Source: Planosporangium thailandense (GTDB lineage Bacteria; Actinomycetota; Actinomycetes; Mycobacteriales; Micromonosporaceae). Taken from it: a stretch of DNA of 64,000 bases. Positions 43,332 to 63,993 of the stretch are shown here, in pieces (the stretch's first letter is position 1; every line of letters starts with the position of its first letter). The position numbers and the translations under genes are program-made. The DNA lies in contig NZ_JAATVY010000025.1 in the NCBI RefSeq assembly GCF_011947195.1, positions 26,163 through 90,162 on the forward strand, given 5' to 3'. The notes under the pieces were generated by a model, which was not told the origin of the DNA, did not search any database, and saw only the letters and a list, made by a program, of their open reading frames with translations.

Positions 43332-43332
43332 C

Positions 43333-43881
43333 ATGCTCGATCGCGACCAGGGCGAGCCGCGGCGGACGCCGGAGGAGGCGGCCGTCGCGGTTGCCGGACG
43401 GCCGGCCATCCGTCGTCCCGCCGCGGACTTCAGGGTGCGCAAGCTTTTCGACGACCTGCCGTGCTGCCACCGGTCCTGGGCGCACGGCGGCAAATGCGCC
43501 TTCCTGCACGGGTACGAGCGCTCCTTCGAGATCGAGTTCGCGTGCGCGGAGCTGGACCCGGCGACCGGTTTCGTCGTGGACTTCGGTGACCTGAAGGAGG
43601 TGCGCCGGCTGCTGAGCGACCAGTTCGACCACACCACCCTGGTCGCGGAGAACGACCCGGAGCGGGAACTGTTCGAGCAGCTCGGGCGCCGGGGCGTGGT
43701 CGACTTGCGGATCATGGCGAACACCGGCATGGAGGGCGCCGCCGAGTGGGCACTCGAGCACGCCGACCGCATCGTCCGCGACCGGACGGGCGGCCGGGTC
43801 CGCGTCACCCGGGTCTGCGCCCGGGAATCCCGCAAGAACGCGGTCACACTCGTCGCCGGTACTGACGGAACGGTCGACTGA
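43333..43881 (+). CDS. 6-pyruvoyltetrahydropterin synthase / QueD-family homologue with altered metal motif
   Basis: 182 aa. The fold signatures are LPCCHRSWAHGGKCAFLHGY, GFVVDFGDLKEVRRLL, LSDQFDHTTLVAEND and NTGMEGAAEWALEHA. In QueD/PTPS the Zn is held by one His plus an HGH pair; here HGH reads HGY, so one expected ligand is missing, while the Cys before it (KCAFLHG) and the DH pair are kept. The substrate would be dihydroneopterin triphosphate from the operon's FolE. It could make a 6-substituted tetrahydropterin or have a changed reaction. No QueE or QueC is nearby, so a queuosine/deazapurine route is unlikely. Confidence 0.8.
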   Translation: MLDRDQGEPRRTPEEAAVAVAGRPAIRRPAADFRVRKLFDDLPCCHRSWAHGGKCAFLHGYERSFEIEFACAELDPATGFVVDFGDLKEVRRLLSDQFDHTTLVAENDPERELFEQLGRRGVVDLRIMANTGMEGAAEWALEHADRIVRDRTGGRVRVTRVCARESRKNAVTLVAGTDGTVD

Positions 43882-43883
43882 GC

Positions 43884-48397: not shown

Positions 48398-48419
48398 GCG
48401 CGCGGGGAGGGGAGGCACC

Positions 48420-49643: not shown

Positions 49644-49651
49644 GGTAGAGC

Positions 49652-50158
49652 GTGAACTACATCGCCGCACTGCGTGCGCTGGTCGGCAACCGGCCCCTGA
49701 TCCTTCCCGGCACCTCGGTCCTGATCCTTGACGGTGACGACCGGCTGTTGCTCATCGAGCGCGTCGACACTGGTGGATGGGGGCTACCCGGCGGCTTCAT
49801 GGAGCCCGGTGAGTCCTTCGAGGAGACCGGACGGCGGGAGGCGCGCGAGGAACTGGGACTCGACCTGGGGGAACTGTCACTGCTCGGGGTCTTCTCCGGC
49901 GCCGAGTACCACTACCGGTACCCCAACGGCGACGAGGTCTTCAACGTCACCGCCGCCTACCTGACGGCGTTCCCGGCCGGCGCGCGTATCGTCGTCGACC
50001 CGGGCGAGGCCGCGCGGGCCGTCTTCTTCGCCCCTGACGAACTACCCCCGGAGGTCATCTCACCGGAGCGACCCATCGTCGAGGCGTACCGGCGGTGGCT
50101 GTCGAACCGGGGCGCCACGTGGGCCGGGGCCACCGGGTACGCGGGGACGGCCGGGTGA
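49652..50158 (+). CDS. Nudix hydrolase
   Basis: 168 aa from GTG 49652. Complete Nudix box: GFMEPGESFEETGRREAREE followed by LGL (GX5EX7REUXEEXGU). In other organisms a Nudix enzyme removes pyrophosphate from dihydroneopterin triphosphate, the FolE product, which would fit this operon. An alternative is a nucleotide-sugar hydrolase. Last gene of the 36.4-50.2 kb operon, 8 bases after the aminotransferase. Confidence 0.88.
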   Translation: MNYIAALRALVGNRPLILPGTSVLILDGDDRLLLIERVDTGGWGLPGGFMEPGESFEETGRREAREELGLDLGELSLLGVFSGAEYHYRYPNGDEVFNVTAAYLTAFPAGARIVVDPGEAARAVFFAPDELPPEVISPERPIVEAYRRWLSNRGATWAGATGYAGTAG

Positions 50159-50307
50159 CGACGCCCGGCACGGCCCACCCGGCCCTCGCCACGCGACTCC
50201 GTGCACGCGCTGGTCGCCGTCGGTTTCGATCCTCGGTCCCGGCGGGGCGGGTCGCCGCGGTGCGCGGGCAGAGCGAACTGGACGCTCGCCTCGCCGCCGG
50301 CCGAGGG

Positions 50308-51105
50308 TCAGGCATCCGCGGGGCCGCCCATGATCAGGTGCTGAACGTCGGCGTAGCTGGGCGCGTCGGGCGCGGCCGGCCGGCCCTCGGCGACGTCCAC
50401 GGCGGCTGCCACTGCGGCCTGCAGGGCCGCGCGGAACAGCAGTGAGCCGTAGCTGATCCGACGCACCCCGAACGCGGCCAGGTCACGGTAAGTGGGCCCG
50501 CCGGGTCGGTACAGCACGTTCAGCGGCGCGGGCACCGCCGCGACCATCGCGGCGACGGCGTCGTCCGGCAGGCCCGGGACGAACACGCCGTCCGCGCCGG
50601 CGCGCACGTAGGCCGAGGCCCGTGCGATCGCCTCGTCCGGCGTCGGCCGTGCGCCGGCGGCGAGCCAGTACACGTCGGTGCGCGCGTTGACGAACAGCTC
50701 CGGCACCCGCTCTTTGACGGCGGCCACCACGTCGTAGTGGTGGTCGACCGGCGCGAGCGTGTCATCGGGCCGGCCGTCTTCGACGTTGATACCGACCACG
50801 CCCGTGTCCCGCAGACGGGCCCCGAACGCCGCCACCTCCTCGGGGCGGTCGCTGAAACCGCCCTCGATGTCGACCGTGAGGAGGACCGGTAGCCGGCTCA
50901 GTCGCTCGGCCAGCCGCAGCGTGTCGTCCCGGGTGGCTCCGGTGGCGTCGGGTTCGCCGACCGCTGCGGCGACGCCCAGGCTGGTGGTGCCCAGGGCGGG
51001 GAAGCCGCGCGCGGCGAGGGCGGCCGCGGAGGCGTAGTCCCAGACGTTGGGCAGGAGCAGCGGCTGATCGCCGTGATGGAGCGCGCGGAACCGGGCAGTG
51101 TCCAT
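50308..51105 (-). CDS. Isocitrate lyase/PEP-mutase-family protein
   Basis: 265 aa from ATG 51105 (ATG 51114 possible). LLPNVWDYASAAALAARGFPALGTTSLGVA, TVDIEGGFSD (metal Asp), GVVGINVEDGR and LFVNARTDVYWLA match the oxaloacetate-decarboxylase-like branch of the superfamily, not phosphonate PEP mutases (no EDKxFPKxNS motif). The function is probably C-C bond cleavage of a 2-oxo or 2-hydroxy acid. It is convergent with the Nudix gene and appears unrelated to the operons at its sides. Confidence 0.82.
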   Translation of the reverse strand: MDTARFRALHHGDQPLLLPNVWDYASAAALAARGFPALGTTSLGVAAAVGEPDATGATRDDTLRLAERLSRLPVLLTVDIEGGFSDRPEEVAAFGARLRDTGVVGINVEDGRPDDTLAPVDHHYDVVAAVKERVPELFVNARTDVYWLAAGARPTPDEAIARASAYVRAGADGVFVPGLPDDAVAAMVAAVPAPLNVLYRPGGPTYRDLAAFGVRRISYGSLLFRAALQAAVAAAVDVAEGRPAAPDAPSYADVQHLIMGGPADA

Positions 51106-51288
51106 GGTGTACACATTACGGCCGCGACGCGGAAGTCTGTGTGTAGTTGCGCCAAGCCACAGCAATGGTTACGCGCCGGTACCAGCAGTGACTGGTTCAC
51201 GACAGACAGCCGTTCCATTGACCACGAAGAATTCCTTCAGCTGGCCGTCCGACCTGCCGGACGGTTCCCGCGATCGAGGGGGAGCCGA

Positions 51289-53418
51289 TTGTCCAGAATG
51301 CTGTCCAGCCGAAGCTACCCGCGGGCCCACCGTGCGGACACCGTGGACGTGCTCGGGGGTCGAGCCGTCGCCGACCCGTACCGTTGGTTGGAGGACGCGG
51401 ACGACCCGCGCACCCGGGAGTGGCTCGACGCGCAGGCGGACCTGTACGAGCGGGCCCGTGCCAGCTGGGCGGACCGGCCGGCCGTACTGGAGCTGCTGCA
51501 CAAGCTGACCGCGTTCGACCTTCTCTCGGTACCGCGATGGCGCGGTGGGCGGGCCTTTTACACCCGCCTCGGAGTCGAGGCCGAGCGCGTCGCGCTGCTG
51601 GTCGCGGAGGACGGCAGCGAGCCGCGCACGTTGATCGATCCCGCGGCGACCGATCCCACCGGCGAGACCGCCCTTGGCGCATGGGCACCCTCGGTCGAGG
51701 GGACGTTGCTGGCGTACGAGCTGGCGGTCGGCGGTACCGAGGAGTTCGCGCTGCGGGTACGCGATGTCGATACCGGCGTCGATGTGGACGGCCCGATCCC
51801 GGGCTGCCGCTATACGAGCGTGGCCTGGCTGCCGGGCGGGGCGGCGTTCTACTACTGGCGCGACCGCGGTGCCGGCCCGCGGGTATACCTGCACGAACTG
51901 GGTGCTGATCCGGCCGCTGATGCCGAGGTTTTCCACGGGGCGGCGGACGCGGAGGAGTTCGATCTCGTCATCGGCGCCGACGGCCGCTGGCTGGTGATCA
52001 CCGCGACGGTCGGGCTCGGCGACACCACCCAGGTGTGGGTGGCTGACCTCGCGGCAACGTCGCCGGATCGCCCGGCGATGCGCCGCCTGGCCGACGCCGA
52101 GGGTGGCTGGACCGCGGTGTGGCCGCACCGCGACGGGCTGCTCTACCTGTTCACCGACACCGACGCCCCACGCGGTCGGATCCTCGTCGTGGATCCGACC
52201 GCCGACCCGGAGGTCCGGGCCCGGACGCTGGTCGCCGAGGATGCCGTCGACGTCATCGAGTCACTGGCCATCGTGGACGACCTGCCCGTACCGGAGCTGC
52301 TGGTGTGGCGAGCACGGGCCGGCCGATCCGTGCTCACCCGGCACCGGCTCGACAGCGGGGCAACCCTCGGCGAGGTGACCCTGCCCGGGCGGGGAATCGT
52401 CTCCGAGCTCGCCGCGCGCCCGGAGGGCGGCCCCGAGGCGTGGTTTCGCTACTCCGACCGGCTCACGCCGGAAACGGTGTACCACTACGACGCGCGCACC
52501 GGCGCCTGTGCGCCCTGGCGGGCCGGGCCACTGCCCGAGGTGCCGGCCGTGGTCGCCACCGAGACCACCTACCGCTCCGCCGACGGCACGCCGGTACGGC
52601 TGCTGCTGCTGGGCCCGCGCGAGGACGGGACGGCCGGTCACGCGCCGCGTCCCACCATCGTGCAGGCGTACGGGGCATTCGGCGAACCGCAGGTTGCCGA
52701 CTACTACGCCGCCGCGCTGGCCTGGGCCGCCGGCGGCGGGCTGTTCGCCGTCGCCTGCGTACGCGGCGGCGGCGAGGAGGGCGAGGAGTGGCACCGGGCC
52801 GGCGCCGGAGCGCACAAGCAGCAGGGCATCGACGACTTCCTCGGCGCCGGCGAGTACCTGATCAAGGCCGGTTACACGCAGCCCGGCGGTCTCGGCGCGT
52901 TCGGCCAGAGCGCCGGCGGGCTGCTCGTCGCCGCCGCGCTGACCCAGCGACCCGACCTGTTCGCCGCCGTCGCCTGCACCGCGCCGCTGACCGACATGGC
53001 CCGCTACGAACTCAGCGGGCTCGGCGAGTACTGGCGCGAGGAGTTCGGCCGGCGGGACCAGCCGGCCGAACTGGAGTGGCTGCTCGGGTACTCGCCGTAC
53101 CACCGGGTGGTACCGGACACCGGGTACCCGGCGGTGCTGCTGACGGCGTTCGCCGACGACGGCCGCGTCGACGCGGGCCACGCCCGCAAGCTGGCCGCCG
53201 CGCTGCAACACGCCACGGCCGCCCCGGACCCGATCCTGCTCCACCATGAGGCCGGCGTCGGCCACGGCGAGCGTACCCGCAGCGGCCGCCTCGCCTACTA
53301 CGCCGACGTCGTTTCCTTCTTTGCCGCGCATCTGCGCGCCGATGCCTCCGTCGCCGCGCATCTACGCATCAACCACCACCACCATGCGCCACCGGATACG
53401 GCTGGCCAGCACCAGTGA
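51289..53418 (+). CDS. Prolyl oligopeptidase (S9A)
   Basis: 709 aa from TTG 51289 (GGGGGAG five bases upstream; ATG 51298 is the alternative). The N-terminal beta-propeller begins DPYRWLEDADDPRTREWLDAQ. The catalytic domain has GGLFAVACVRGGGEEGEEWH, Ser541 in FGQSAGG, Asp in LLTAFADDGRVD and His in AGVGHGERT. No signal peptide, so it is cytosolic. It cleaves small peptides after Pro and sometimes Ala. Lying 47 bases upstream of an 18-residue peptide gene and an E1-like enzyme, it may process or detoxify the modified peptide. Confidence 0.9.
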   Translation: MSRMLSSRSYPRAHRADTVDVLGGRAVADPYRWLEDADDPRTREWLDAQADLYERARASWADRPAVLELLHKLTAFDLLSVPRWRGGRAFYTRLGVEAERVALLVAEDGSEPRTLIDPAATDPTGETALGAWAPSVEGTLLAYELAVGGTEEFALRVRDVDTGVDVDGPIPGCRYTSVAWLPGGAAFYYWRDRGAGPRVYLHELGADPAADAEVFHGAADAEEFDLVIGADGRWLVITATVGLGDTTQVWVADLAATSPDRPAMRRLADAEGGWTAVWPHRDGLLYLFTDTDAPRGRILVVDPTADPEVRARTLVAEDAVDVIESLAIVDDLPVPELLVWRARAGRSVLTRHRLDSGATLGEVTLPGRGIVSELAARPEGGPEAWFRYSDRLTPETVYHYDARTGACAPWRAGPLPEVPAVVATETTYRSADGTPVRLLLLGPREDGTAGHAPRPTIVQAYGAFGEPQVADYYAAALAWAAGGGLFAVACVRGGGEEGEEWHRAGAGAHKQQGIDDFLGAGEYLIKAGYTQPGGLGAFGQSAGGLLVAAALTQRPDLFAAVACTAPLTDMARYELSGLGEYWREEFGRRDQPAELEWLLGYSPYHRVVPDTGYPAVLLTAFADDGRVDAGHARKLAAALQHATAAPDPILLHHEAGVGHGERTRSGRLAYYADVVSFFAAHLRADASVAAHLRINHHHHAPPDTAGQHQ

Positions 53419-53465
53419 GATAGATCGTGCCCGCACCACCCCACCCCTCGGAGGAGGTGAACGAC

Positions 53466-53522
53466 ATGATCAAGAAGTCCACCAAGCGCTACAGCGCCGC
53501 CGCGACCGTGGCGAAGGGCTGA
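53466..53522 (+). CDS. 18-residue peptide, candidate precursor for the MccB-like enzyme
   Basis: Encodes MIKKSTKRYSAAATVAKG. It has one of the best ribosome binding sites in the window, GGAGGAGGTGA ending 5 bases before the ATG. It is very basic at its N-terminus and ends in Gly. Tyr and Gly are spaced as in the YxxPxLxxxG recognition motif of lasso leaders, but Pro and Leu are missing. It is followed by a perfect hairpin and then an E1-like enzyme with an N-terminal recognition domain. This is the layout of a minimal peptide substrate (as mccA before mccB). Function inferred; no homologue recalled. Confidence 0.72.
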   Translation: MIKKSTKRYSAAATVAKG

Positions 53523-53529
53523 CACTGAC

Positions 53530-53569
53530 GATGACGGCGGGGTGTCCGCACGGGTACCCCGCCGTCATC
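53530..53569 (+). terminator. Perfect 14-bp hairpin between peptide and E1-like genes
   Basis: GATGACGGCGGGGT (53530-53543) and its exact complement (53556-53569) with a 12-base loop, 8 bases after the peptide stop. It probably acts as a partial terminator or mRNA stabiliser that raises peptide over enzyme. It also argues against a start for the enzyme at ATG 53531. Confidence 0.7.
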
Positions 53570-53614
53570 ACGGACGCCGTACCCGATGCGCATCGACAAC
53601 GCCGAGGAGGCGCC

Positions 53615-54772
53615 GTGGCACACCCCGCGCTCAAGACCAGCATCCCCTACTTCATCGCCGACGGGGCCGCACACTTCCGGCTGAGCGGTGAGCTCACCTC
53701 GCTGGAGGACCCCGACGGCCGGGTCGGCACGCTGCTGTCCCTTCTCGACGGGACCCGCACGGTCGACGAGATTCATCGTGACCTGTCCGCCACCTACCCC
53801 GACATCACGCCCGCCGACGTGGCCGAGGCGGTCCGCGACCTCGACGAGACCGGACTGTTGCAGGACGCCGATGACCGCGGCGACGACTTCGGCGAGGCGG
53901 CGCGCGCACGCTGGTCCAACAACCTCGGCTTCTTCGAGACGTACGCCTCGCTCACCACCTCCAAGTACGAGTTCCAGCGCCGGCTGCGCGACGCCAAGGT
54001 GGCTGTCCTCGGCGTCGGCGGGATCGGCTCGCACGTCTTCATCGACCTGGTGGCGATCGGGTTCACCGACATCCGCATCGTCGACTTCGACCGGATCGAG
54101 CTGTCGAACTTCAACCGGCAGATCCTCTACGGCGAGCCGTACATCGGTCGGTTGAAGGTCGAGGTCGCGGCCGAGCGGGCCCGCACGCTCAACAGCGGCG
54201 TCCGCATCGATCCGGTGCAGAAGCGACTCACCAGCGCCGACGACGTCTACGAGGTGGTCGCGGACCGGGACATCGTGATTGCCGTCGTGGACCGTCCGAA
54301 GATGCACATCGCGCACTGGCTGAACGAGGGCTGTGTCCGCGCCGGCACCGCGTTGATCGGCGGGGGAGTGGACACCCAGCGCGCCACCCACTACACCATG
54401 GTGCCGGGCGTGAGCGGCTGCGTCGAATGCTGGCTCCGCCAGGTGCAACGGGACGACCCCACGTCACGGATGGTGCTCGACGTGATGCACCGCATCGACC
54501 GCGACGGCGAGCAGTTCGGCGAGGACACCGCTGCCTTCAACGGCCTGGTGCTCACCGCCGCCGGCCACATGGTCAACGAGATGGTGCGGTTGGCCAGCGG
54601 GGTAACCCCGCCGCTGTCGGTCGGCCGGCTGCTCGCGGCCAGTTTCCACGACCCACGGCCGGTCGAGGCCGAGTCGTGGAAACGCGACCCCGACTGCTCC
54701 GTCTGCCGGCACGCGGCGCCGAAACCAGCGCTGCGATGGCTGGCCTCGGAGGCCGGCCCGCTGCCATTCTGA
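53615..54772 (+). CDS. MccB-like E1 (ThiF-family) adenylating enzyme with N-terminal recognition domain
   Basis: 385 aa from GTG 53615 with GAGGAGG just upstream. Residues about 1-95 look like a winged-helix peptide-recognition element (SLLDGTRTVDEIHRDL, VAEAVRDLDETGLLQ). From about 125 the E1 fold follows: VAVLGVGGIGSHV (ATP loop), IVDFDRIELSNFNRQILYG (Asp, Asn, Arg, Gln), then two CxxC pairs for Zn at 269/272 (CVEC) and 361/364 (CSVC). The order and the segment SNNLGFFETYA before the ATP loop match MccB of microcin C, which adenylates its heptapeptide. Retained ATP residues argue for an active enzyme. No YcaO partner is near. Confidence 0.85.
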   Translation: MAHPALKTSIPYFIADGAAHFRLSGELTSLEDPDGRVGTLLSLLDGTRTVDEIHRDLSATYPDITPADVAEAVRDLDETGLLQDADDRGDDFGEAARARWSNNLGFFETYASLTTSKYEFQRRLRDAKVAVLGVGGIGSHVFIDLVAIGFTDIRIVDFDRIELSNFNRQILYGEPYIGRLKVEVAAERARTLNSGVRIDPVQKRLTSADDVYEVVADRDIVIAVVDRPKMHIAHWLNEGCVRAGTALIGGGVDTQRATHYTMVPGVSGCVECWLRQVQRDDPTSRMVLDVMHRIDRDGEQFGEDTAAFNGLVLTAAGHMVNEMVRLASGVTPPLSVGRLLAASFHDPRPVEAESWKRDPDCSVCRHAAPKPALRWLASEAGPLPF

Positions 54773-54815
54773 CCTCTCCGGCCGGACCGACACACACCAT
54801 GGAGATCGACCACCC

Positions 54816-56102
54816 ATGACCGACGTCGTGCAGGAGGCGGACACCGCCGGCAACCGCAACGGTGTTCGCCTCCGCTCCGCGTTCCTGGTGTCCTCCGCGG
54901 GGGACTGGATCTATCGCTTCGCGGTTCCGACGCTGATTCTGACGATCACCGGTTCGGCGATGTCGACTGCGATCGCCTACGTGATCGAGTTCATTCCGTA
55001 CATCGTCGTGGGGCTGTTCGCGGGCGTGGTGGCCGACCGGGTCAACCGGCGCCGGGTCCTCATCGCCTGCGACGTGACCTCGTTCGTCATCGCGCTGGCG
55101 ATCGCCGGGTTCGCCGCCCTGGAGCATCCCCCGGTGGCGGCGCTGTACGGCTGCGCGTTCCTGCTGGCCTGCGTACGACCGTTCTACTTCCCCGCGTTCC
55201 AGGGCTTCCTCGTCGACGTGACGCCGGAGCGCAAGCTGTCCCGCATCAACGCGTGGACCCAGACGATCGACAGCACGCTGGGCTTCCTCGGGCCGATCAT
55301 CGGTACCGCGCTGATCGCCGAGCTCGGGGTGCCGCTCGCGGCGCTGGTCAACGCCCTGTCGTTCGCGCTCTCCGCCCTGCTGATCTACCAGATCTCGTAC
55401 GTGGTCGCCGGAGCGGGCGCCACCGGCGAGGGGCAGCTGGGCGCGGCGCTCGCCGGCGTCGGCCGGGACTTCGTCGCCGGCCTGCACACCGTCTGGCGGA
55501 TCCGGCCGATCTGGTGGGGGACCCTGCTGATGGCCGCGGCAAACCTGGCCGGGTACGTCGTCGAGGGCAACCTGGTCTACCTGCTGCTCACCGCCGAGCG
55601 ACTGCCGAAGATCGCACTTGGCCTGGTGTTCAGCGCGCACGGGCTGGGTGCCGTGGCCGGCGCGGTGCTGGCGCCGCGGCTGATCGACCGGTACCCGACC
55701 GGGCGGCTGCTGGCCGCCGGGATGGGCCTGTCCGCAGTGGCGATGGCGTTGCCGGCCGTGATACCGCACTATGGCGCGATCATTGTCGGCTGGGGCATCG
55801 AGGGGATCGCCACCTCGGTGATCGTCGTGTCCTGGTTCACCGCCCGCCAGAAGATCGTCGCTGCCGACATGATCGGGCGCGTGGTGTCGGTGAGCCGGGC
55901 GGTCGCCTACGTCGCGATCCCGCTCGGCGCCGTCCTCGGCGGCGCGCTCGCCGCGCAGACCAGCCCGGTGCGGTTGCTGTTCCTGTGCGCAGCGCTGCTT
56001 CAGGCGGCCGTCTTCGTCGGTACCGCCGTATCTCCGGTGGGCCGCATCGACTCCGCGGTGCCCGCGCCGGCGAGCGACCCACACTCGCCCGCGCTGCCCT
56101 GA
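54816..56102 (+). CDS. MFS exporter next to the E1-like gene
   Basis: 428 aa, about 12 hydrophobic segments: FLVSSAGDWIYRFAVPTLILT, GLFAGVVADRVNRRRVLIA (loop 2-3 motif), FQGFLVDVTPERKLSRINAW. Same broad group as the exporter at 44750 but clearly different in sequence. Forty-three bases after the E1-like gene. Microcin-C-like clusters also carry an MFS exporter, which supports a secreted peptide product. Confidence 0.87.
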   Translation: MTDVVQEADTAGNRNGVRLRSAFLVSSAGDWIYRFAVPTLILTITGSAMSTAIAYVIEFIPYIVVGLFAGVVADRVNRRRVLIACDVTSFVIALAIAGFAALEHPPVAALYGCAFLLACVRPFYFPAFQGFLVDVTPERKLSRINAWTQTIDSTLGFLGPIIGTALIAELGVPLAALVNALSFALSALLIYQISYVVAGAGATGEGQLGAALAGVGRDFVAGLHTVWRIRPIWWGTLLMAAANLAGYVVEGNLVYLLLTAERLPKIALGLVFSAHGLGAVAGAVLAPRLIDRYPTGRLLAAGMGLSAVAMALPAVIPHYGAIIVGWGIEGIATSVIVVSWFTARQKIVAADMIGRVVSVSRAVAYVAIPLGAVLGGALAAQTSPVRLLFLCAALLQAAVFVGTAVSPVGRIDSAVPAPASDPHSPALP

Positions 56103-56197
56103 CGGCGCGGTTGTCGAGCGGTCGTACCCGTGGAGGACACCGCCGGGGCGCGCAGGACCAAGACACGCGTGCGCACGGGTTTGGACGTGCTAGACGG

Positions 56198-57577
56198 ATG
56201 AGTGCTTGGCAGAATCGGAGTATGAGTGGCTGCGACCAACCAGCCGCGGCCGATTTCCTCGCAGACCCGCTCGACTGGCTCTGCACGGCGAGTCGGGCCG
56301 GTCCTGTGGCCGTCGTGAGCGACACCGGTCCGGTGCTCTCCCATCAAGAGACGGCGGTTGGCGCCGTGGGTGTTTTCGGACCGGCTCTGGTGCGACGGGT
56401 CCTTGGCGACATCGAGACATTCGCGATGCCGGCGCCAATTTCGGCCCGGCACGAGTTGCCACCGCCGTTGGCTAACCTCAGCTCCGCGCTTTTCAGTATG
56501 TCTGGCTCGCTCCATCGCAGCCGCCAACAGTTGCTCGCACGGTTGCTCGGACCGGCGTTCGCGGTCGACCAAGACGTCGCCATTGACCGGGGGATCGAGG
56601 CGTTCCTACCAGGCTGGTCACCGGGCCGCGAGGTTGGCTTGATCCAGGAGATGCGCCGGCTGGCACGGTGTGTCGCAGAGCAGGTGCTCTTTGGCGCAGA
56701 CGGCAACGCGGCGGCCGGCATTGGCCTCGCGATCCAGCGGTACTTCGGTCTCCGTCGCTGCTTTGCGTCGCGGTCGAGCCCGTGTGAGCCGGCACAGCTC
56801 GACGCCTTGGTGGAGCAGGGTCTGCTGGTGGACGGCTTGCTGCGAGGGCGCGTACAGGCGCTACTGCGCGCGCGGCCGGGAGGTGCAACCGGGGTATTGG
56901 GCCGTCTATGTCAGCTCACCTCCGATCGTTCGCTGGGTCTTTCCGAAGATGAGTTGGTTGCGCACGCGTGTGTGCTGTTCATGTCGAGTAGCGAGCCGAT
57001 CGCCACCGCGATGACCTGGATCATGCTCGCCCTCAGTCAGCATCCCGAGTTCCGCGCCGATATTCGTGCGGAGCAGCGGGATCCTGTCGCCGGTACCGGG
57101 TCGGTGCGGGGGGTTGTGCGCGAGGTTCTGCGACTCGTCCCGCCGAGCGCAATCATGATGCGATTGACCAGACGCGATGTCGTGCTGGCGGGTGTGCTCC
57201 TACCCGCGCTGTGTGAAGTGATCATCAGTCCCTTCGTCGAGCATCGACGACCTGACGTGTTTCCCGAGCCGCATCGGTTGTGGCCGCAGCGCTGGCTCGC
57301 CGGACGGGTCGATGCTGCACACTTCATTCCCTTCGGCGGCGGGGCCCGTGCGTGCCTCGGTCGGCGTGTCGCGCTGGCAACTCTGGAGCGCGGAACCGCT
57401 GTGCTGCTCTCCGCGGCCGACCCCGTGCTCGCCAAGCCGCAATGGATCGATTGGCAGATGAACGTGACATTGTTGCCGACAACCGATCCGGTGATGCGGC
57501 TTGAGTCGCCCGATGGAGCTCCGGCCCGCGGCTCAATTCTTTCCGGTCCGGCGTCCGACCTTCTACAGCGCACTTAG
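56198..57577 (+). CDS. Cytochrome P450 of the MNIO RiPP cluster
   Basis: 459 aa from ATG 56198 (ATG 56222, after CGGAG, is an alternative). The heme motif is FIPFGGGARACLGRR with Cys386, and ExxR is REVLRL. The I-helix reads MSSSEPIATAMTW, lacking the usual Gly-x-(Glu/Asp)-Thr threonine. In aminopyruvatide clusters the P450 makes a C-C bond between two Tyr side chains, and the precursor encoded next ends YLYD, so the same role is likely. Composition is less GC-rich than the DNA upstream. Confidence 0.88.
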   Translation: MSAWQNRSMSGCDQPAAADFLADPLDWLCTASRAGPVAVVSDTGPVLSHQETAVGAVGVFGPALVRRVLGDIETFAMPAPISARHELPPPLANLSSALFSMSGSLHRSRQQLLARLLGPAFAVDQDVAIDRGIEAFLPGWSPGREVGLIQEMRRLARCVAEQVLFGADGNAAAGIGLAIQRYFGLRRCFASRSSPCEPAQLDALVEQGLLVDGLLRGRVQALLRARPGGATGVLGRLCQLTSDRSLGLSEDELVAHACVLFMSSSEPIATAMTWIMLALSQHPEFRADIRAEQRDPVAGTGSVRGVVREVLRLVPPSAIMMRLTRRDVVLAGVLLPALCEVIISPFVEHRRPDVFPEPHRLWPQRWLAGRVDAAHFIPFGGGARACLGRRVALATLERGTAVLLSAADPVLAKPQWIDWQMNVTLLPTTDPVMRLESPDGAPARGSILSGPASDLLQRT

Positions 57578-57624
57578 TGATCTTGGTTTAGGCTTTGCAA
57601 ATACGACACTTTGGAGGCTAAGCC

Positions 57625-57822
57625 ATGGCACAGAGCAAAGAGGAGCCTGCCCAAATGTCGAACATCGAGATTAACCGGCACACGGAGATCAATCTCGAGG
57701 TTGACGAGGAGAAGCTTCAGGCGATCAGATCTTGTCTGGAGAAGGGTCGGCTGTCCATCCGCATGAGCAATGTCGACCTCTCACAGGCGGGCCGGCTTCA
57801 AGCGCCCTATCTATACGACTGA
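57625..57822 (+). CDS. RiPP precursor peptide with C-terminal Tyr-Leu-Tyr-Asp
   Basis: 65 aa. TTGGAGG lies 7 bases before the ATG. The N-terminal part is polar and likely helical leader (NLEVDEEKLQAIRSCLEKG), then LSIRMSNVDLSQAGR and the terminal QAPYLYD. Two Tyr one residue apart and a C-terminal Asp are the residues crosslinked and oxidised in aminopyruvatide biosynthesis. A lone Cys sits mid-leader (about residue 37). It lies directly between the P450 and MNIO genes. The exact cleavage point is not visible; Gly-Arg before LQAPYLYD is a candidate. Confidence 0.88.
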   Translation: MAQSKEEPAQMSNIEINRHTEINLEVDEEKLQAIRSCLEKGRLSIRMSNVDLSQAGRLQAPYLYD

Positions 57823-57837
57823 GCATTTGGAGCGGTA

Positions 57838-58683
57838 ATGGAGTATCTTGCCCTCGAGCCGGGCGGTCCTCCACTCGTTGGGCTGGCCAACGGACCGGTT
57901 GTGGAACCATTTCTCGCTCGGCACGACCGCCTACTGGACTATGTCGAGGTGTCTTTCGAGCAGTTGCGCCACAATCCCGTAGCGGCGCAGCTCCAGGAGC
58001 AAATTCCGGTCCTGCTGCATTGCTCGAGCATGTCGGTTGCCGGCTTCGTACCACCGACCGACCAGACCCTCGAGGCCATCGCCGAACACGTGGATCGTAC
58101 GCGTACGCCATGGATTGGCGAGCACTTGGCCTTCATCTCGGCAGATGCATTGGGGGGCGACGACGCTGTCGGACCGACTGAATTGACCTACACAGTCTGC
58201 CCGCAACTGAGTGAGGAGACGGTGGAGCGAGTCGTGGTGAACCTGAGCTGTCTCCGCACCCGGTTCTCCGTGCCGATCATTCTGGAGAACTCCCCGCAGT
58301 ATCTGGCCTTGCCAGGTAGCACCATGACGATGGCTGCCTTCGTCGCGCAGGTCGCCCAGCGGTGCGACGTCGATCTGCTGCTCGATGTGACCCACTTTCT
58401 CATCACCGCGAACAACATGGGGCTCGACCCAATCGCGAGCGTGCACGAGTTGCCGTTGGAGCGGGTCGTTGAGGTCCATCTCTCCGGGATGTCGCAGCAG
58501 TCGGGACGGTGGTGGGACGACCACGCGGCACCCGTGCCGGACGCGGTGTTTGATCTGCTCAGGCAGATCCGGCGGCGGATCCGGCCGAAGGCGGTGACGT
58601 TCGAATATAACTGGGCGCCATCCATGCCCGAGTCCGTTATCGTCGATCAGATCATTTTCACGCGTGACCTGCTAGCGGTGTGA
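57838..58683 (+). CDS. MNIO (DUF692) multinuclear iron-dependent oxidase
   Basis: 281 aa. TIM-barrel family motifs: DYVEVSFEQL, LLHCSSMSVAG, WIGEHLAFISAD, PIILENSPQYL, DLLLDVTHFLITANNMG, VVEVHLSGM and WWDDHAAPVPD, giving the His/Asp/Glu ligands of the iron cluster seen in MbnB and TglH. ATG is 15 bases after the precursor stop. The expected job, by analogy with ApyH, is oxidative conversion of the precursor's C-terminal Asp to aminopyruvic acid. It acts with the partner protein that follows. Confidence 0.92.
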   Translation: MEYLALEPGGPPLVGLANGPVVEPFLARHDRLLDYVEVSFEQLRHNPVAAQLQEQIPVLLHCSSMSVAGFVPPTDQTLEAIAEHVDRTRTPWIGEHLAFISADALGGDDAVGPTELTYTVCPQLSEETVERVVVNLSCLRTRFSVPIILENSPQYLALPGSTMTMAAFVAQVAQRCDVDLLLDVTHFLITANNMGLDPIASVHELPLERVVEVHLSGMSQQSGRWWDDHAAPVPDAVFDLLRQIRRRIRPKAVTFEYNWAPSMPESVIVDQIIFTRDLLAV

Positions 58684-58684
58684 C

Positions 58685-59521
58685 GTGACCAGGCCCACCT
58701 CGCTCGTCCCGCCGACCACACCGTCGGCAGCGGCGGTACATGCGGTGGTCGCCGCCGGGCTCGCGGACCCGGACCGGCTCCGCGCCTGGCGGGATCGGCC
58801 CGACCTGCTTGCGGCATTGGGGCTGGCGCCGGCCACGGTCGACCTGGAGGCGCTCGAAGACTTTGCGGGCTTGTCGGAGAAGATCCGCTACAACCAGTGC
58901 CGTGGCGATCTCCCGTTGACGTTCCGTCTGCTGTCGCTGACTCAACTGGAGATCGATCTGTTCCGGCAGTACGCGCCCCAGTCGTTGGCTCGACGCCAAC
59001 TCGGCAGGGTGTCCACAAGTGAGCGGCTCGATGGGCTGCTGCTGTTTGTCGAGGCGTGGACGTCAGATACCGATCCGGTTCGTTGCCTGGTGCGGGACGT
59101 GCTCCGGCATGAGCATACGATCGCGTCGCTCCGATCCGCTCCGGTGGCGTCCCGCGTCGAAGTATCCCGCGATCTGGTCGTTCCGCGGCACAACGGCCGT
59201 CTGGTGATTCACCGGATGACATGTGACCCGCGACAGGTCGGCACCGTGCTGCGTGACCGCCATCCCGACCTTACCCAGATCCGGCGGGGGAGATGGACTT
59301 TCGGCTATCACCGATCCACAGCGGGGCCGCTGCGGATACTGGAAATGGAGCCCGGGATCGGCGACCTGTTGATGACTATCGATGGCCGACGTAGTTTTGA
59401 CCAGATCGCAGCCGATCTGTTCGGTGACGCGGGCGCGAGCGACATGCTGCACGCGGCCTTTGCCCAGCTTACCCGGCTGGGGCTGCTGGTCTGGGACGCC
59501 CCGGAGGGGGTGGCGTCCTGA
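58685..59521 (+). CDS. MNIO partner protein with C-terminal peptide-recognition-like domain
   Basis: 278 aa from GTG 58685, one base after the MNIO stop. N-terminal two-thirds is helical (AVVAAGLADPDRLRAWRDRP, FAGLSEKIRYNQCRGDLPL). The end (about 215-275) looks like a PqqD-type winged helix: LEMEPGIGDLLMTIDGRRSF, DQIAADLF, LTRLGLLVW. MNIO enzymes need such partners (MbnC, TglI, ApyI) to bind the precursor leader. The coupling of the two genes supports this. Confidence 0.82.
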   Translation: MTRPTSLVPPTTPSAAAVHAVVAAGLADPDRLRAWRDRPDLLAALGLAPATVDLEALEDFAGLSEKIRYNQCRGDLPLTFRLLSLTQLEIDLFRQYAPQSLARRQLGRVSTSERLDGLLLFVEAWTSDTDPVRCLVRDVLRHEHTIASLRSAPVASRVEVSRDLVVPRHNGRLVIHRMTCDPRQVGTVLRDRHPDLTQIRRGRWTFGYHRSTAGPLRILEMEPGIGDLLMTIDGRRSFDQIAADLFGDAGASDMLHAAFAQLTRLGLLVWDAPEGVAS

Positions 59522-61464
59522 AACTGACTCTCGTCGACAACTTGGTGCTTCCCGCGCAACATGATCTGCACCTGCTCGACACGCATCCGCACTTGGGCCT
59601 GCTTTCGCTGGCCGCCGTGGCCCGCGCCGACGGGCATGATGTGACGATCTACGACCCCAAACGGCTCGTCCGAAGCGGCGCGCTCGCGTATGACGAGACA
59701 CTGTACGAGCGGGTAGCCGATGACCTACTCGCCGGCCGACCCGATGCGGTTGGATTGACGACCCTCGGGTGCAGCTTCACCTTCGTCGTGGGCGTTGGCC
59801 GCGCGCTGGAACGCCGGGAACCCGACCTGCCGCTGTTGCTCGGCGGCCCGCACGCGACGATGCTTGCGCGGCCGATCCTTGACCGGTACCCGACCTTTGA
59901 CGTCGTCGTCCGGCACGAGGCCGAGGAGACGCTTCCTGCCGTGCTCGCCAGCCTCGAGACCAGGGATTTCGTCCGCGTGCCAGGAGTGACCTGGCGGACA
60001 CCTACCGGAGTGGCAGAAACCGCCGGAAGTCCGCGCATCGACGACCTCGATACTCTCCCGTGGCTTGACTACGAGTTGTACCCGATGCGGGAACTGGGCC
60101 TGAGCCTGCTCCGAGTGGAGGCCGGGCGCGGCTGCCCGTTCGCGTGCGTGTTCTGCTCAACGGCCACATTCTTTCAGCGGCGCTACCGGTTGAAGTCGTC
60201 GCGCCGCTTGGTGGCTGAGATGGATGCACTGCGCGACCGGTACGCTCCGCGTGAATTCAAGCTGGACCACGACCTGTTTACTGTGGACAAACGGAAGGTT
60301 CAGGAGTTCTGCGCTGCGGTGGAGGGACATGGTCACCGCTGGCGCGTGTCGGCCCGCGCCGACTGCGTCGATGAGGAGCTTCTCGAACATATGGCGGCTG
60401 CCGGCTGTATCGGCCTCTACCTCGGCGTGGAGGCTGGATCAGAGCGCATGCAGAAGATCTCGGCGAAGCGGCTGGATCTGGACCGAGTGGCGCCTACTCT
60501 CAATGCCTGCGAGCGCCTTGGCATTGAGACGACGGCATCGTTCATCACCGGATACCCGCAGGAGACCACGGAGGATCAAGACGCCACGCTGAATATGCTG
60601 GGCGACTGCTTCGACCGGCCAGCTGGGTCGTGCATCCCGCAACTGCACATCCTGACTCCGGAGCCGGGCACGTTACTGTTCGACCAGTTCGGCCCATCGA
60701 TGCTCTTCGACGGCTACGCCACACCGTTCAACTCGTGGCTGTTACGGCCGGAGGACCGGCAGGAAGTGCTCGCGGAGCCGGCCGTTTTCGCCAGCTACTA
60801 CTATTATCCGACGGCCTTGCCAAGATACGTACACGTTGGCGTGGTTGAGAGCGTGGATCTACTACGTAGGCTCGGTCGCCCCGTTCTTGTCGAACTAATC
60901 CGCTCCCACGGTGGCAAGCTGGCCGAGCTCATACGCGGCCTGATCGCCGCCAGTCCCAAAACCGGGCCACCTGGTGCCCGGGAGCTAGAAGAGTACGTGC
61001 GGGCGAGGCTGGGCGACGACGATCCGGTCACCTCGCTGGTGCGATACGCGCTGCTGCTACGAAACCCCGTACCTGCACGGCGCCGGAGGCGACCCTCGGC
61101 GCCGACCGACAGGGCTGCCAATATCCATGCTCGTTACGCTCTCCCGGCAGGGCTGCGGATGCTCCACAACGTCCACGACTGCGCCGAGGTCATGGAATGG
61201 CTGTCGGATGGGAGTCGGCCGGTCGACGCGGCGCACCTGCCACGCACCAGTTACGTGCTGCTGCCCGGCGAGGAGCGGCCCGCACAGGTCGCCCTCGGTG
61301 TCACTGCGCTACTTGACCTGGTCGGAGCCGGCTGCAGTCCGCACGACGTGGCAGTGTCGGTCGGTGCCATCGGCGACGACCTGACCGAGCAGTGGTTGGC
61401 TGACCTCGTTGATGCTGGGCTGCTCATAGCTGCCGACGTGGACGAATCGGTCGACGCCAACTGA
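59518..61464 (+). CDS. B12-dependent radical SAM enzyme
   Basis: 648 aa if started at CTG 59518, where GGAGGGGG lies 7 bases upstream and the first beta-strand of the B12 domain (KLTLVDNLVLP) is included; TTG 59539 or GTG 59542 would cut into it. B12-binding Rossmann domain: HPHLGLLSLAAVARADGHDV, LTTLGCSFTF, LLGGPHATML. Radical SAM cluster CxxxCxxC at about 206/210/213 (CPFACVFC), then GVEAGSERMQKISAKRL and FITGYPQET. The C-terminal 110 residues form an extra domain that may bind the leader. The role by analogy with ApyD is beta-carbon methylation of a Tyr. Confidence 0.9.
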   Translation: MKLTLVDNLVLPAQHDLHLLDTHPHLGLLSLAAVARADGHDVTIYDPKRLVRSGALAYDETLYERVADDLLAGRPDAVGLTTLGCSFTFVVGVGRALERREPDLPLLLGGPHATMLARPILDRYPTFDVVVRHEAEETLPAVLASLETRDFVRVPGVTWRTPTGVAETAGSPRIDDLDTLPWLDYELYPMRELGLSLLRVEAGRGCPFACVFCSTATFFQRRYRLKSSRRLVAEMDALRDRYAPREFKLDHDLFTVDKRKVQEFCAAVEGHGHRWRVSARADCVDEELLEHMAAAGCIGLYLGVEAGSERMQKISAKRLDLDRVAPTLNACERLGIETTASFITGYPQETTEDQDATLNMLGDCFDRPAGSCIPQLHILTPEPGTLLFDQFGPSMLFDGYATPFNSWLLRPEDRQEVLAEPAVFASYYYYPTALPRYVHVGVVESVDLLRRLGRPVLVELIRSHGGKLAELIRGLIAASPKTGPPGARELEEYVRARLGDDDPVTSLVRYALLLRNPVPARRRRRPSAPTDRAANIHARYALPAGLRMLHNVHDCAEVMEWLSDGSRPVDAAHLPRTSYVLLPGEERPAQVALGVTALLDLVGAGCSPHDVAVSVGAIGDDLTEQWLADLVDAGLLIAADVDESVDAN

Positions 61465-61465
61465 C

Positions 61466-61972
61466 TTGTGGTCCGTAACGGACCTGACCCAGGCGTTCCA
61501 CATGGCTGCCCCGGTGGATTTCGTCGCGGACGCGCTCGGATCTGTAGGGCAAGCGCTGATCCATCAGTACATCGGCCCATACGGGCCCAACACATCAGCG
61601 CTACCCACTCGCTCGCGCAGGCCCCCGCACCTCGGTGCCCAGTTGGTGGATCGTGCCCGGCACGCCCTCGCGTTCACGTGCGCTCCGGGGCCCGGCACCG
61701 TGCGACTGCCGCAACTGCTCCGAATGCTGGATCTCGGCGACGTGCTGGACTTGGGCTGAGGCACCGGCGGACCGCTCGTCGCTATGGCGGCCGAGCCGCG
61801 TTTCCGTGGCTGCGGGATCGACCGAACCCAGGCGATGATCAGTATCGCCGAGCAGCGCCTGCGGACCGCGGGCGTAGGCACCGACCGTATCCGACTGTAT
61901 GTAGGAGATGCCATCACCCTGAGTGCGGTCGTGCCAAGCGACGTGCTGCCGACAGTGACGACAAGGCCGTGA
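61466..61972 (+). pseudogene. Broken SAM methyltransferase (in-frame TGA in motif I, C-terminus missing)
   Basis: Reading from TTG 61466 gives a methyltransferase N-terminus (VDFVADALGSVGQALIHQYIG) that reaches motif I as VLDLG, then TGA at 61757-61759, then GTGGPLVAMAAEPRFRGCG and GIDRTQAMISIAEQRL in the same frame. The intact motif would be DLGCGTGG, so TGC to TGA explains the stop. The frame ends at 61972 soon after a motif-II-like VGDAIT, well short of a full enzyme. It occupies the place of the C-methyltransferase (ApyS) in related clusters. Confidence 0.8.
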
Positions 61973-61992
61973 CGCTGACAATGCACCGGTCA

Positions 61993-62027
61993 GGAAGGCC
62001 ATGACCCACGCCGGTTCATGGCCTTCC
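61993..62027. terminator. Perfect 12-bp hairpin closing the RiPP cluster
   Basis: GGAAGGCCATGA (61993-62004) and TCATGGCCTTCC (62016-62027), 11-base loop, 21 bases past the broken methyltransferase. It may also serve the convergent gene at 62115. Confidence 0.7.
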
Positions 62028-62114
62028 GCCGATAGCCGTGGGAATCTATGTGATTTGAGTGGGCGCTCGAACAGGCAGTCTGAGAGGTGTGCTGCTCGAT
62101 CGCTGGTGGCGTCG

Positions 62115-62456
62115 TCAGTCGATCTTGATGCCTCTATACACAGCGAACCACCCGAATTCAAGTGCGCCCACGTCGGACTGGGTGAAAGCTCCGCCAAAGA
62201 TGAGTTCCGGTGGGTGGTTGTCTCCCAGGTGGCCCGTGTACGTCTGGGTCACGTCGCCAGGCAGTTGACGATTGAGGACTATCTCTCTGGCTCCCGGACT
62301 CCAGGTGCCGGTCCAAAGGTCTTTGCGATTCACATCATCGAAGCTGACTTCCAGCTCGACGGGGCCGTTGTCGGCTGCCGCGAATATCGTCATTGTGCCG
62401 GGAGATCCGTTACCGTTGATCAGCCAATTCCCTATGAGATCTTTACCGCTCGCCAT
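62115..62456 (-). CDS. Small beta-rich protein, unknown
   Basis: 113 aa with a strong Shine-Dalgarno (GGGAGGTGA) 4 bases before the ATG. LIGNWLINGNGSPGTMTIF, WTGTWSPGAREIVLN, TYTGHLGDNHPPELIFGGAF and FGWFAVYRG alternate polar and hydrophobic residues like a calycin or avidin-type beta-barrel, but I cannot assign a family. No signal peptide. It lies between the RiPP cluster terminator and another uncharacterised gene on the same strand. Confidence 0.7.
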   Translation of the reverse strand: MASGKDLIGNWLINGNGSPGTMTIFAAADNGPVELEVSFDDVNRKDLWTGTWSPGAREIVLNRQLPGDVTQTYTGHLGDNHPPELIFGGAFTQSDVGALEFGWFAVYRGIKID

Positions 62457-62589
62457 CGTTCACCTCCCGAAACGTCGTGTTCGTCTGTCCCCGATTGTGT
62501 GGCGCAGCGCGCGCCCCCTGCTTCCCGGTAGTGGGGCGTTGAGGTGGGAAAGGATTGGGCGCGGAGGTGCAGGGTCAAGCACGGTACAC

Positions 62590-63993
62590 TTATTCATGGC
62601 CAATGAGGACGACGGTATAGCCACCTACAAGCTCTTCGTCAATGCGTTGCCTTGTTCGGATTATCTGGGCTTCGCCAGGTTTGAGGTCTGGTATGTACGC
62701 GTGGAGTGGGATGTGTAGTTGGTCGCATCCTCGATAGAATTGCTGGCGTTGTCGCAGTAGTTTGCTCCGCTCGGCGGGTACAAGAATTTCTGGGTCCGGG
62801 AGGGTGACATCGACGGGTGTCGGGTTTAGCAGGCCGGCGGCGGCGGTGCTCGACGGAGTCCGGAGGCGGGTGTTGCGACTTCCTGCGTACAGTTGAAGCC
62901 ACTCCATCGTTCCGGGCGGCTCGACCACGACGTCCACGTCGGCTTGGCCCGGAGTGGCATACCAACCCAACTGCAAATCGACGGTCGCCTGTGCGGGTGA
63001 CGCTGCCTGTACGACCGCGATGTTGCGTTGTCCAACGTGGCGATCCGTGGACGGAGAGAATGAGTTCAGCGCGACGGGGTCGAACATCGTATCGCCGGCG
63101 CGGACGACCAGGCACTCATGTCCGTTGTTGAGGAACTCCGGTATCCAGGTGGTGGGGCATTTCACGACGGCGTGTGCGCCCCGGCTCAGCCAGGTGCCGT
63201 ACGCCTCGGTGACCTCACGCCACTCGGCGTAGACAGTGAAGCGATCCGCTAGGTCGACGTACGTGGCGCCGATGAGGTGGCCCGCCGATCTGGAGAAACC
63301 GAGGCTCGGATCGAACCACCAGAATTCTATCCGCACCCGGAACGCGGGTGCCTTGCCCAGGTTCCACACGTGTGCGTACAGCGTGTTGGGTCGGCCGGCC
63401 TGTGCCGTCTCGCCCTGGCTGGCCGGGCGGAGTGGTGCGTCGTCGGCGGCTTGGTTGGGCACGACATAGATGTCTGGTGACTCCCAGAAGACCCCGGGCG
63501 ACGGGCGTTGCCCACGGTCGGCCGAATTCCGCCGGATTAACAGGTACGGTAATAATTCATCCTTGCGCGGACCAAATGTCGGACCGATCCGTCCGACCTC
63601 GCTGACCTTGCCGCGGAACCAGGGAATCTCCGAGGGATCTCCGACCGGCGGGCGATCCTGCTGCCATGGAGGAGTATCGGAGGTCTGTGGCTGGAACGGC
63701 GGAGGGTGGGGTATGTCGACCGTCCCAGGGGGCGCGGGCGTGTCCGGCGGTGGGCAGCAGGGGCGAGGTGGATGCTTGGTACCTTTGCCGCATTCGCAGG
63801 AAACTGATACCCGGACGTCCACGTCCCGGTTGCAGAGGCACCGGCAGGGATGCTCCGAATCGTGATGCTTTCCGCATTCTTCGGCGTCTCCTGGCCTGTT
63901 TTGGTGCTCGCAGCTACACCGGTAGTGATACGTCTGATCATTTTCGTATTGGCGGTCGGGCCGGTCTGCGCGTCCTTCGTCATTCACATTCAT
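62590..63993 (-). CDS. Large protein with Cys/His-rich N-terminus, unknown
   Basis: 467 aa from ATG 63993; only 7 bases of upstream sequence are in the window, so the start is not confirmed and could lie further out. Residues about 22-82 are rich in Cys and His (YRCSCEH, AEECGKHHDSEHPCRCLCN, SCECGKGTKH, RPCCPPP), suggesting metal binding. A Pro-rich linker (PPPDTPAPPGTVDIPHPPP) follows, and the rest alternates as beta-sheet (LYAHVWNLGKAPAFRVRIEFW resembles CARDB/Ig-like adhesion folds). No signal peptide or membrane segment. I do not recognise it. About 130 bases separate it from the gene at 62115. Confidence 0.68.
   Translation of the reverse strand: MNVNDEGRADRPDRQYENDQTYHYRCSCEHQNRPGDAEECGKHHDSEHPCRCLCNRDVDVRVSVSCECGKGTKHPPRPCCPPPDTPAPPGTVDIPHPPPFQPQTSDTPPWQQDRPPVGDPSEIPWFRGKVSEVGRIGPTFGPRKDELLPYLLIRRNSADRGQRPSPGVFWESPDIYVVPNQAADDAPLRPASQGETAQAGRPNTLYAHVWNLGKAPAFRVRIEFWWFDPSLGFSRSAGHLIGATYVDLADRFTVYAEWREVTEAYGTWLSRGAHAVVKCPTTWIPEFLNNGHECLVVRAGDTMFDPVALNSFSPSTDRHVGQRNIAVVQAASPAQATVDLQLGWYATPGQADVDVVVEPPGTMEWLQLYAGSRNTRLRTPSSTAAAGLLNPTPVDVTLPDPEILVPAERSKLLRQRQQFYRGCDQLHIPLHAYIPDLKPGEAQIIRTRQRIDEELVGGYTVVLIGHE

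What the first reader, a model, noticed from the sequence alone, without database searches (positions are those of the whole stretch)
56198..61972. Aminopyruvatide-type RiPP cluster: P450, precursor, MNIO, partner, B12-radical SAM, decayed methyltransferase
Seen: six consecutive same-strand genes with diagnostic motifs (P450 heme Cys, DUF692 ligand set, PqqD-like partner, CPFACVFC with B12 domain, SAM motif I) around a 65-residue peptide. Known, from memory of the aminopyruvatide work in Burkholderia: P450, MNIO, B12-rSAM and methyltransferase act on one precursor to give a biaryl Tyr-Tyr link, beta-methyl-Tyr and a C-terminal aminopyruvic acid. Inference: this is an actinobacterial version with its own leader and a missing methyltransferase step, probably uncharacterised.
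Basis: partly seen in the sequence, partly recalled or inferred. Interest (0 to 1): 0.93.

Follow-up and report, generated by a model that had tools for sequence, protein, structure and literature searches.

The report
Aminopyruvatide peptide cluster lacking methyltransferase
This stretch of a likely actinobacterial genome carries the genes of the known aminopyruvatide family, but the last one, a methyltransferase, is broken, so it is likely to make a simpler, less methylated version of a known kind of small ring-shaped peptide that is predicted to block cysteine proteases.

Summary
Five intact genes in order, apyO (P450), apyA (65-residue precursor), apyH (MNIO), apyI (partner) and apyD (B12-radical SAM), each pass the curated NCBIfam equivalog cut-off of the aminopyruvatide family. 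They are followed by a dead apyS methyltransferase: 92 of the required 400 bits, model positions 73-216 of 323, one in-frame TGA, and no better copy in the genome. The precursor keeps the published recognition features: a C-L-E-K-G motif, Arg1, Tyr-Leu-Tyr and the C-terminal Asp. This is a new member of a described RiPP class, whose authors had already reported Actinomycetota members (PMC11117315), and not a new kind. Specific to this locus is the loss of ApyS, so the predicted product ends in plain aminopyruvic acid (net -18 Da) without its beta-methyl. ApyH's closest relatives are unnamed metagenomic proteins (up to 79%); it was found in no other genome of three overlapping samples. The prolyl oligopeptidase, RRE-ThiF and MFS genes just upstream also occur together in Nonomuraea, where tblastn found no apy gene, so they are best read as a separate module.

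The parts
56198..57577 (+). apyO, cytochrome P450 predicted to join the two Tyr rings (459 aa)
   Evidence: NF050147 616 bits / cut-off 525; PF00067 4e-29; heme motif FGGGARACLG
57625..57822 (+). apyA, precursor peptide, 65 aa, ends RLQAPYLYD; an inner ATG at 57655 would give 55 aa
   Evidence: NF050146 69.3 bits / cut-off 47; 5 homologues besides itself; alignment with 8 relatives
57838..58683 (+). apyH, multinuclear non-heme iron oxidase (281 aa)
   Evidence: NF050151 462.6 bits / cut-off 400; metal-site-type residues the same in 124 of 124 aligned rows, itself included
58685..59521 (+). apyI, partner protein of ApyH (278 aa)
   Evidence: NF050149 349.5 bits / cut-off 200; no Pfam hit; no PDB relative by sequence at E 1
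59518..61464 (+). apyD, B12-binding radical SAM enzyme; CTG start at 59518 overlapping the apyI stop (the tool lists TTG 59542)
   Evidence: NF050148 838 bits / cut-off 750, matched from model position 9; 8 upstream codons LKLTLVDN align with the N-termini of three relatives
61466..61972 (+). apyS pseudogene: N-terminal and C-terminal parts lost, in-frame TGA at 61757-61759
   Evidence: tblastn of an intact ApyS: 36% over residues 81-226 of 331; NF050150 92.2 bits / cut-off 400, model 73-216 of 323, 1 TGA
54816..56102 (+). MFS exporter of the neighbouring module; only a possible exporter of the product (inference)
   Evidence: MFS_1 1e-29; 67% identical gene in Nonomuraea, no apy gene found beside it

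Best explanation
This is an aminopyruvatide gene cluster (apyO-apyA-apyH-apyI-apyD) whose apyS methyltransferase gene is broken, so it is predicted to make an aminopyruvatide that ends in plain aminopyruvic acid. Shown here: gene content, order, family membership, the precursor's recognition residues and the decay of apyS. Inferred from the published B. thailandensis pathway: ApyD would beta-methylate Tyr8 (+14), ApyO would link Tyr6 and Tyr8 (-2), and ApyH with ApyI, which need the CLEKG-type motif of the precursor, would turn the C-terminal Asp9 into aminopyruvic acid (-30). With ApyS dead, its final +14 would not occur. A protease not yet identified would then release the Tyr-Leu-Tyr macrocycle with its alpha-keto-acid end, which likely inhibits papain-type cysteine proteases.
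For: Five of five intact genes pass NCBIfam equivalog cut-offs. The C-terminus RLQAPYLYD matches the published RMGEGYLYD at Arg1, Tyr6, Leu7, Tyr8 and Asp9; Arg1 is required by ApyO, Lys keeping about 8% (PMC13192836), and the Cys of CBX2-3G is required by ApyHI (PMC11117315). MNIO site-type residues H61, E95, H96, E150, N151, D183, H186, H214, D227, H229 and E256 are the same in 124 of 124 aligned rows (that these are the metal-site positions is recalled). ApyH sits in a supported group of 50 rows (100/99) with other listed hits, one of them a named Actinomycetota MAG protein, P0022, which passes the same cut-off. apyS remnant; no better copy elsewhere in the genome. ApyA relatives P0122-P0126 end in PYLYD in 5 of 5. 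Protease inhibition: a pentapeptide that was ApyS-methylated but not ApyD-methylated had IC50 0.3-0.6 nM on papain and cathepsins B and L, in a preprint.
Against: No expression or product data. apyD has a CTG start, so the ApyD step could be weak. A cluster with one dead gene may itself be decaying. The inhibition data are for a compound that carries the ApyS methyl, which this product would lack; trypsin, chymotrypsin and Mpro were not inhibited by it. The genome's other, generic SAM methyltransferases were not excluded as substitutes. No leader protease is assigned. The equivalog cut-offs are not met by every relative: the ApyO of L002 scores 469 against 525.
Confidence: 0.85

Rival explanations
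1. The whole cluster is decaying and makes no product: apyS is only the first gene to break, and apyD has already lost its normal start codon.
For: apyS has lost both ends and has a stop. apyD begins with CTG, where relatives have ATG (two) or GTG (one). No sigma-70-type promoter was found in 53300-62700, a weak test in an actinobacterium.
Against: The five other genes are full length and pass equivalog cut-offs, with a ribosome-site-like GGAGG before apyA and GGAGGGGG before the apyD CTG. ApyH keeps all the invariant residues.
Confidence: 0.12
2. The upstream prolyl oligopeptidase, RRE-ThiF and MFS genes belong to the apy pathway: the peptidase cuts after the Pro that precedes YLYD and the MFS protein exports the product.
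For: Same strand, 95 bp from the MFS gene to apyO. The peptidase is prolyl-oligopeptidase-like over its length (2bkl, 4e-105). Pro stands just before the macrocycle in 7 of the 9 aligned precursors. At L004, whose core also has Pro there, an S15 X-Pro dipeptidyl-peptidase gene lies about 3 kb upstream of apyO on the other strand.
Against: In Nonomuraea gerenzanensis the same three genes stand in the same order with their own 18-aa reading frame, and tblastn at E 1e-5 found no apy gene in that 31 kb stretch. No prolyl oligopeptidase (S9) showed among the 10 flanking genes scanned at L002-L004; the peptidases there are S15 (L004) and an FtsH-type M41 (L002). apy genes have lower GC3 than the upstream ORFs picked.
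Confidence: 0.08
3. It is a biphenomycin-like or another MNIO/B12-rSAM RiPP and not an aminopyruvatide.
For: Biphenomycin-like clusters also pair an MNIO, a partner and a B12-rSAM (PMC12257519, abstract).
Against: The precursor lacks the FHAFRF motif; there is a P450; the models passing their cut-off for the five genes are the Apy ones.
Confidence: 0.01

Closest known systems
Aminopyruvatide (apy) cluster of Burkholderia thailandensis E264 (PMC11117315, PMC13192836)
   Same: Same set O, A, H, I, D; precursor with CBX2-3G, Arg1, YLY and C-terminal Asp
   Different: ApyS broken here; Pro instead of Gly before YLYD; likely actinobacterial host. The E264 sequences themselves were not compared here (one search found no record)
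apy clusters at L002 (Burkholderiaceae isolate BURC assembly), L003 (Bradyrhizobium betae), L004 (Tahibacter soli)
   Same: Same order O-A-H-I-D, ApyH 52-56% identical
   Different: These carry an apyS after apyD (L002 cut by the contig end, L003 331 aa, L004 alignable without a stop over residues 9-331 of it); cores AWLYD, GYKYD, PWLYD
ApyH/ApyA proteins listed from metagenomes and Actinomycetota MAGs (P0002-P0050, P0022, P0122-P0126)
   Same: ApyH 61-78% identical by BLASTP; precursor core PYLYD
   Different: No genomic context available, so whether they have apyS is unknown
Biphenomycin-like pbs/bip clusters (PMC12257519, PMC12707348; abstracts and outlines seen)
   Same: MNIO with partner and B12-rSAM
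   Different: Other precursor motif, arginase, hydroxylases; B12-rSAM makes the crosslink

Membership tests
Aminopyruvatide RiPP | MNIO of the ApyH group (class-defining per PMC11117315) | tested here: met
   NF050151 462.6 / 400 bits; tree
Aminopyruvatide RiPP | Partner protein ApyI | tested here: met
   NF050149 349.5 / 200 bits; the RRE fold itself was not modelled
Aminopyruvatide RiPP | Precursor with C-B-X2-3-G motif and C-terminal Asp | tested here: met
   CLEKG and final D; NF050146 69.3 / 47 bits
Aminopyruvatide RiPP | With a P450: aromatic residues 2nd and 4th from the C-terminus, Arg/Lys at position 1 | tested here: met
   RLQAPYLYD; ApyO 616 / 525 bits
Aminopyruvatide RiPP | B12-radical SAM ApyD (97% of clusters in the paper) | tested here: met
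   838 / 750 bits
Aminopyruvatide RiPP | Methyltransferase ApyS (93% of clusters in the paper; not class-defining) | tested here: not met
   Only a remnant, 92.2 / 400 bits with a stop
Aminopyruvatide RiPP | Product with C-terminal aminopyruvic acid | not testable with these tools
   Needs expression and mass spectrometry
Biphenomycin-like RiPP | FHAFRF precursor motif | tested here: not met
   Absent from the 65-aa precursor

The most novel reading that the evidence does not exclude
An actinobacterial aminopyruvatide that has shed its last methylation: a bare Tyr-Leu-(beta-methyl)Tyr-aminopyruvate macrocycle, cut free after the Pro that precedes YLYD by the prolyl oligopeptidase of the neighbouring module and exported by its MFS protein, as a cysteine-protease inhibitor whose keto acid lacks the neighbouring methyl group.
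Probability: 0.08. Interest if true: 0.5.

Novelty: new member of a known kind. Interest (0 to 1): 0.3.

Why it matters
A preprint reports sub-nanomolar inhibition of papain-type proteases by an aminopyruvatide-type peptide. The locus gives a likely actinobacterial enzyme set with a Pro-YLYD core, and a naturally ApyS-less pathway that would show what the terminal methyl group does. It enlarges a known class and does not open a new one.

Tried and rejected
POP/ThiF/MFS as part of apy: rejected as the leading view after the module without a detected apy gene in Nonomuraea, though an S15 Pro-specific peptidase gene near apy at L004 keeps the idea of a Pro-directed cut alive. Biphenomycin-like reading: rejected on the precursor motif. 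In-frame TGA as recoding: rejected, because both ends of apyS are missing as well. Second apyS elsewhere in the genome: not found; the other matches are 21-29 bits. Empty-site search in relatives: led nowhere; the right-hand neighbour protein was found in 1 (E 1e-20) and the MFS protein in 0 (E 1e-60) of 60 relatives besides the own genome. Plasmid search with ApyH: 329 records, all under 60% identity, the 20 listed at 27-32%. Promoter/terminator scan: nothing above the shuffles. tRNA: none in the window. No structure prediction was run.

Weak points of the counts: the GC rows labelled POP, tiny and RRE-ThiF were read in wrong frames and are void; one search picked ORFs with GC3 above 0.75, so its upstream values are selected. 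In one search the L004 ApyI row runs past its stop at the end. L006 (Massilia) is broken into several frames across apyO, H, I and S and was left out of the alignments and tree. L005 was used in the ApyH alignment and tree only. These two hold the window, 119 of the 706 other hits (all of those listed), and 4 loci. One search queried the prolyl peptidase from 51289; its likely start is the ATG at 51298.

Full report
Observation. The reported genes exist at the reported coordinates. Scanned against NCBIfam, five of five intact genes exceed the curated equivalog cut-off of the aminopyruvatide family: ApyO 616/525, ApyA 69.3/47, ApyH 462.6/400, ApyI 349.5/200 and ApyD 838/750 bits. Pfam agrees where it has models: P450, MbnB_TglH_ChrH, Radical_SAM and B12-binding. 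The genes lie head to tail with gaps of 47 and 15 bases (O-A, A-H) and near contact or overlap for H-I-D.

Start of apyD. The tool lists a TTG start at 59542, and the family model is then entered only at position 9. The eight codons upstream, from a CTG at 59518, read LKLTLVDN and align with the N-termini of three relatives, which start with ATG (two) or GTG (one). A GGAGGGGG stretch ends 7 bases before the CTG. A CTG start is therefore the likely reading (inference).

Precursor. The 65-residue peptide carries CLEKG, an instance of the CBX2-3G motif that ApyHI needs, and ends RLQAPYLYD. Against the published B. thailandensis core RMGEGYLYD it is identical at Arg1, Tyr6, Leu7, Tyr8 and Asp9. 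Arg1 is needed by ApyO: every replacement was deleterious and Lys kept about 8% (PMC13192836, parts 1 and 2 of 5 read). The motif Cys is needed by ApyHI (PMC11117315, section 11). A search of 5.8 billion proteins found the window's own peptide and five others, all five ending PYLYD, one of them named as a Microlunatus MAG protein. With three precursors from Pseudomonadota loci, nine align; Pro precedes the macrocycle in seven of nine.

Dead apyS. An intact ApyS from Bradyrhizobium (331 aa, 534.8 bits against a cut-off of 400) matches the window only over its residues 81-226, at 36%, with an in-frame TGA where relatives have the Cys of LDLGCG. The ApyS model gives 92.2 bits against 400, positions 73-216 of 323. 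The own genome (7.01 Mb, 114 contigs, 98.5% complete) has no better copy: the other matches are 21-29 bits, typical of any SAM methyltransferase, and 8 of the 14 control genomes also give such matches, none over the cut-off. The three comparable Pseudomonadota loci have apyS after apyD: 331 aa in L003, alignable without a stop over residues 9-331 in L004, cut by the contig end in L002; L006 has it in pieces, in a stretch full of frame breaks. In the founding paper 93% of clusters have the methyltransferase.

Host. The best named match of four of four window proteins tried against the plasmid collection is an actinobacterium: Paenarthrobacter 39% and 61%, Nonomuraea 67% and 72%. An actinobacterial host is the natural reading, by inference.

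Kinship and rarity. ApyH's best relatives are unnamed metagenomic proteins (up to 78% by BLASTP, 79% in the tree); the window falls in a supported group of 50 rows (100/99) that also holds a named Actinomycetota MAG protein. In three overlapping samples of whole genomes only the own genome had a match at the limits used (E 1e-50, 1e-40): 1 of 201 with relatives, 1 of 396 of the phylum, 1 of 394 of the class, the own genome counted in each. A scan of GTDB species genomes with ApyH gave five loci, none actinobacterial, records of the own genome possibly left out. At least one of the scan's six peptide words occurs in 47 of 49 of the closest listed relatives, but in 94 of 124 rows overall, so close kin would rarely have been missed and more distant kin more often. 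The founding paper does mention Actinomycetota members.

Origin. GC3 of the five apy genes is 0.71-0.78 and of two genes to the right 0.67-0.70. The 38 ORFs picked upstream lie at 0.81-0.96, although the picker itself required more than 0.75. Together with the absence from 200 relatives this suggests that apy was acquired as the left edge of a lower-GC stretch (inference). The window ends where the contig appears to end (base 90162), so the right edge of that stretch cannot be seen.

Left boundary. The upstream prolyl oligopeptidase, RRE-ThiF protein and MFS exporter were tested as possible parts of the pathway. In Nonomuraea gerenzanensis the same three genes (58, 72 and 67% identical) stand in the same order with a conserved 18-residue reading frame between peptidase and ThiF, and tblastn at E 1e-5 found no apy gene in the 31 kb around them. 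They are best seen as a separate module, and the apy cluster as starting at 56198. Against a clean split: the peptidase fits the Pro before YLYD, and at L004, whose core also has that Pro, an S15 X-Pro dipeptidyl-peptidase gene lies about 3 kb upstream of apyO on the other strand; L002 has an FtsH-type M41 gene upstream, and L003 showed no peptidase among the three genes scanned.

Mechanism. From the published pathway (PMC11117315, abstract, section 5 part 1 of 3, sections 11 and 12 read): ApyD methylates the beta-carbon of the penultimate Tyr (+14), ApyO links the two Tyr rings (-2), ApyHI turns the terminal Asp into aminopyruvic acid (-30), and ApyS methylates that residue (+14). Here the last step would be missing, giving -18 Da in all. 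This equals the mass of the published ApyO/HI/S product, so the mass alone cannot tell the two apart. For activity, a product with the ApyS methyl but without the ApyD methyl inhibited papain and cathepsins B and L at 0.3-0.6 nM and did not inhibit trypsin, chymotrypsin or Mpro (preprint); that inhibition also holds for the product here is an inference.

Verdict. An ordinary but otherwise complete-looking member of a known class with one tailoring gene lost. The paper searches for aminopyruvatide and aminopyruvic (6 and 7 papers hold the terms, 4 listed in each, two of the latter on soybean ferments) and for the enzyme set (8 hold, 5 listed) show no study of this cluster in what I saw: PMC12452194 by passages, PMC12257519 and PMC12707348 by abstract and outline, PMC11002830 by listing only.

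Noticed in passing
51298-56102: A separate RiPP-like module: prolyl oligopeptidase (likely ATG 51298), an 18-residue reading frame MIKKSTKRYSAAATVAKG with a GGAGGAGG site before it (53466-53522), an RRE-ThiF (E1-like) protein (likely GTG 53615-54772) and an MFS exporter. Nonomuraea gerenzanensis has the same four in the same order, with MIKKSTKRYSVAGGTQKG (L026:14925). The ThiF plus MFS pair recalls microcin C-type clusters (recalled, not tested). The first nine residues as a DNA pattern occur in only 1 of 396 genomes of a phylum sample, the own one; the more distant ThiF loci L008-L014 showed no such frame in a simple scan; a paper search for ThiF, prolyl oligopeptidase and RiPP together gave none.
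   Followed up: partly
36640-51165: Upstream biosynthetic block: a type I PKS module (KS, AT, KR, ACP), a PTPS/QueD-like protein, an MFS protein, an epimerase, a DegT aminotransferase and a NUDIX protein; product unknown.
   Followed up: no
59518-59542: apyD seems to start with CTG, overlapping the apyI stop codon, where three relatives have ATG or GTG.
   Followed up: partly
62115-63993: Two low-GC3 reverse-strand genes of unknown function up to the window's end; the larger one has a relative in 1 of 60 related genomes besides its own at E 1e-20 and no NCBIfam hit.
   Followed up: partly
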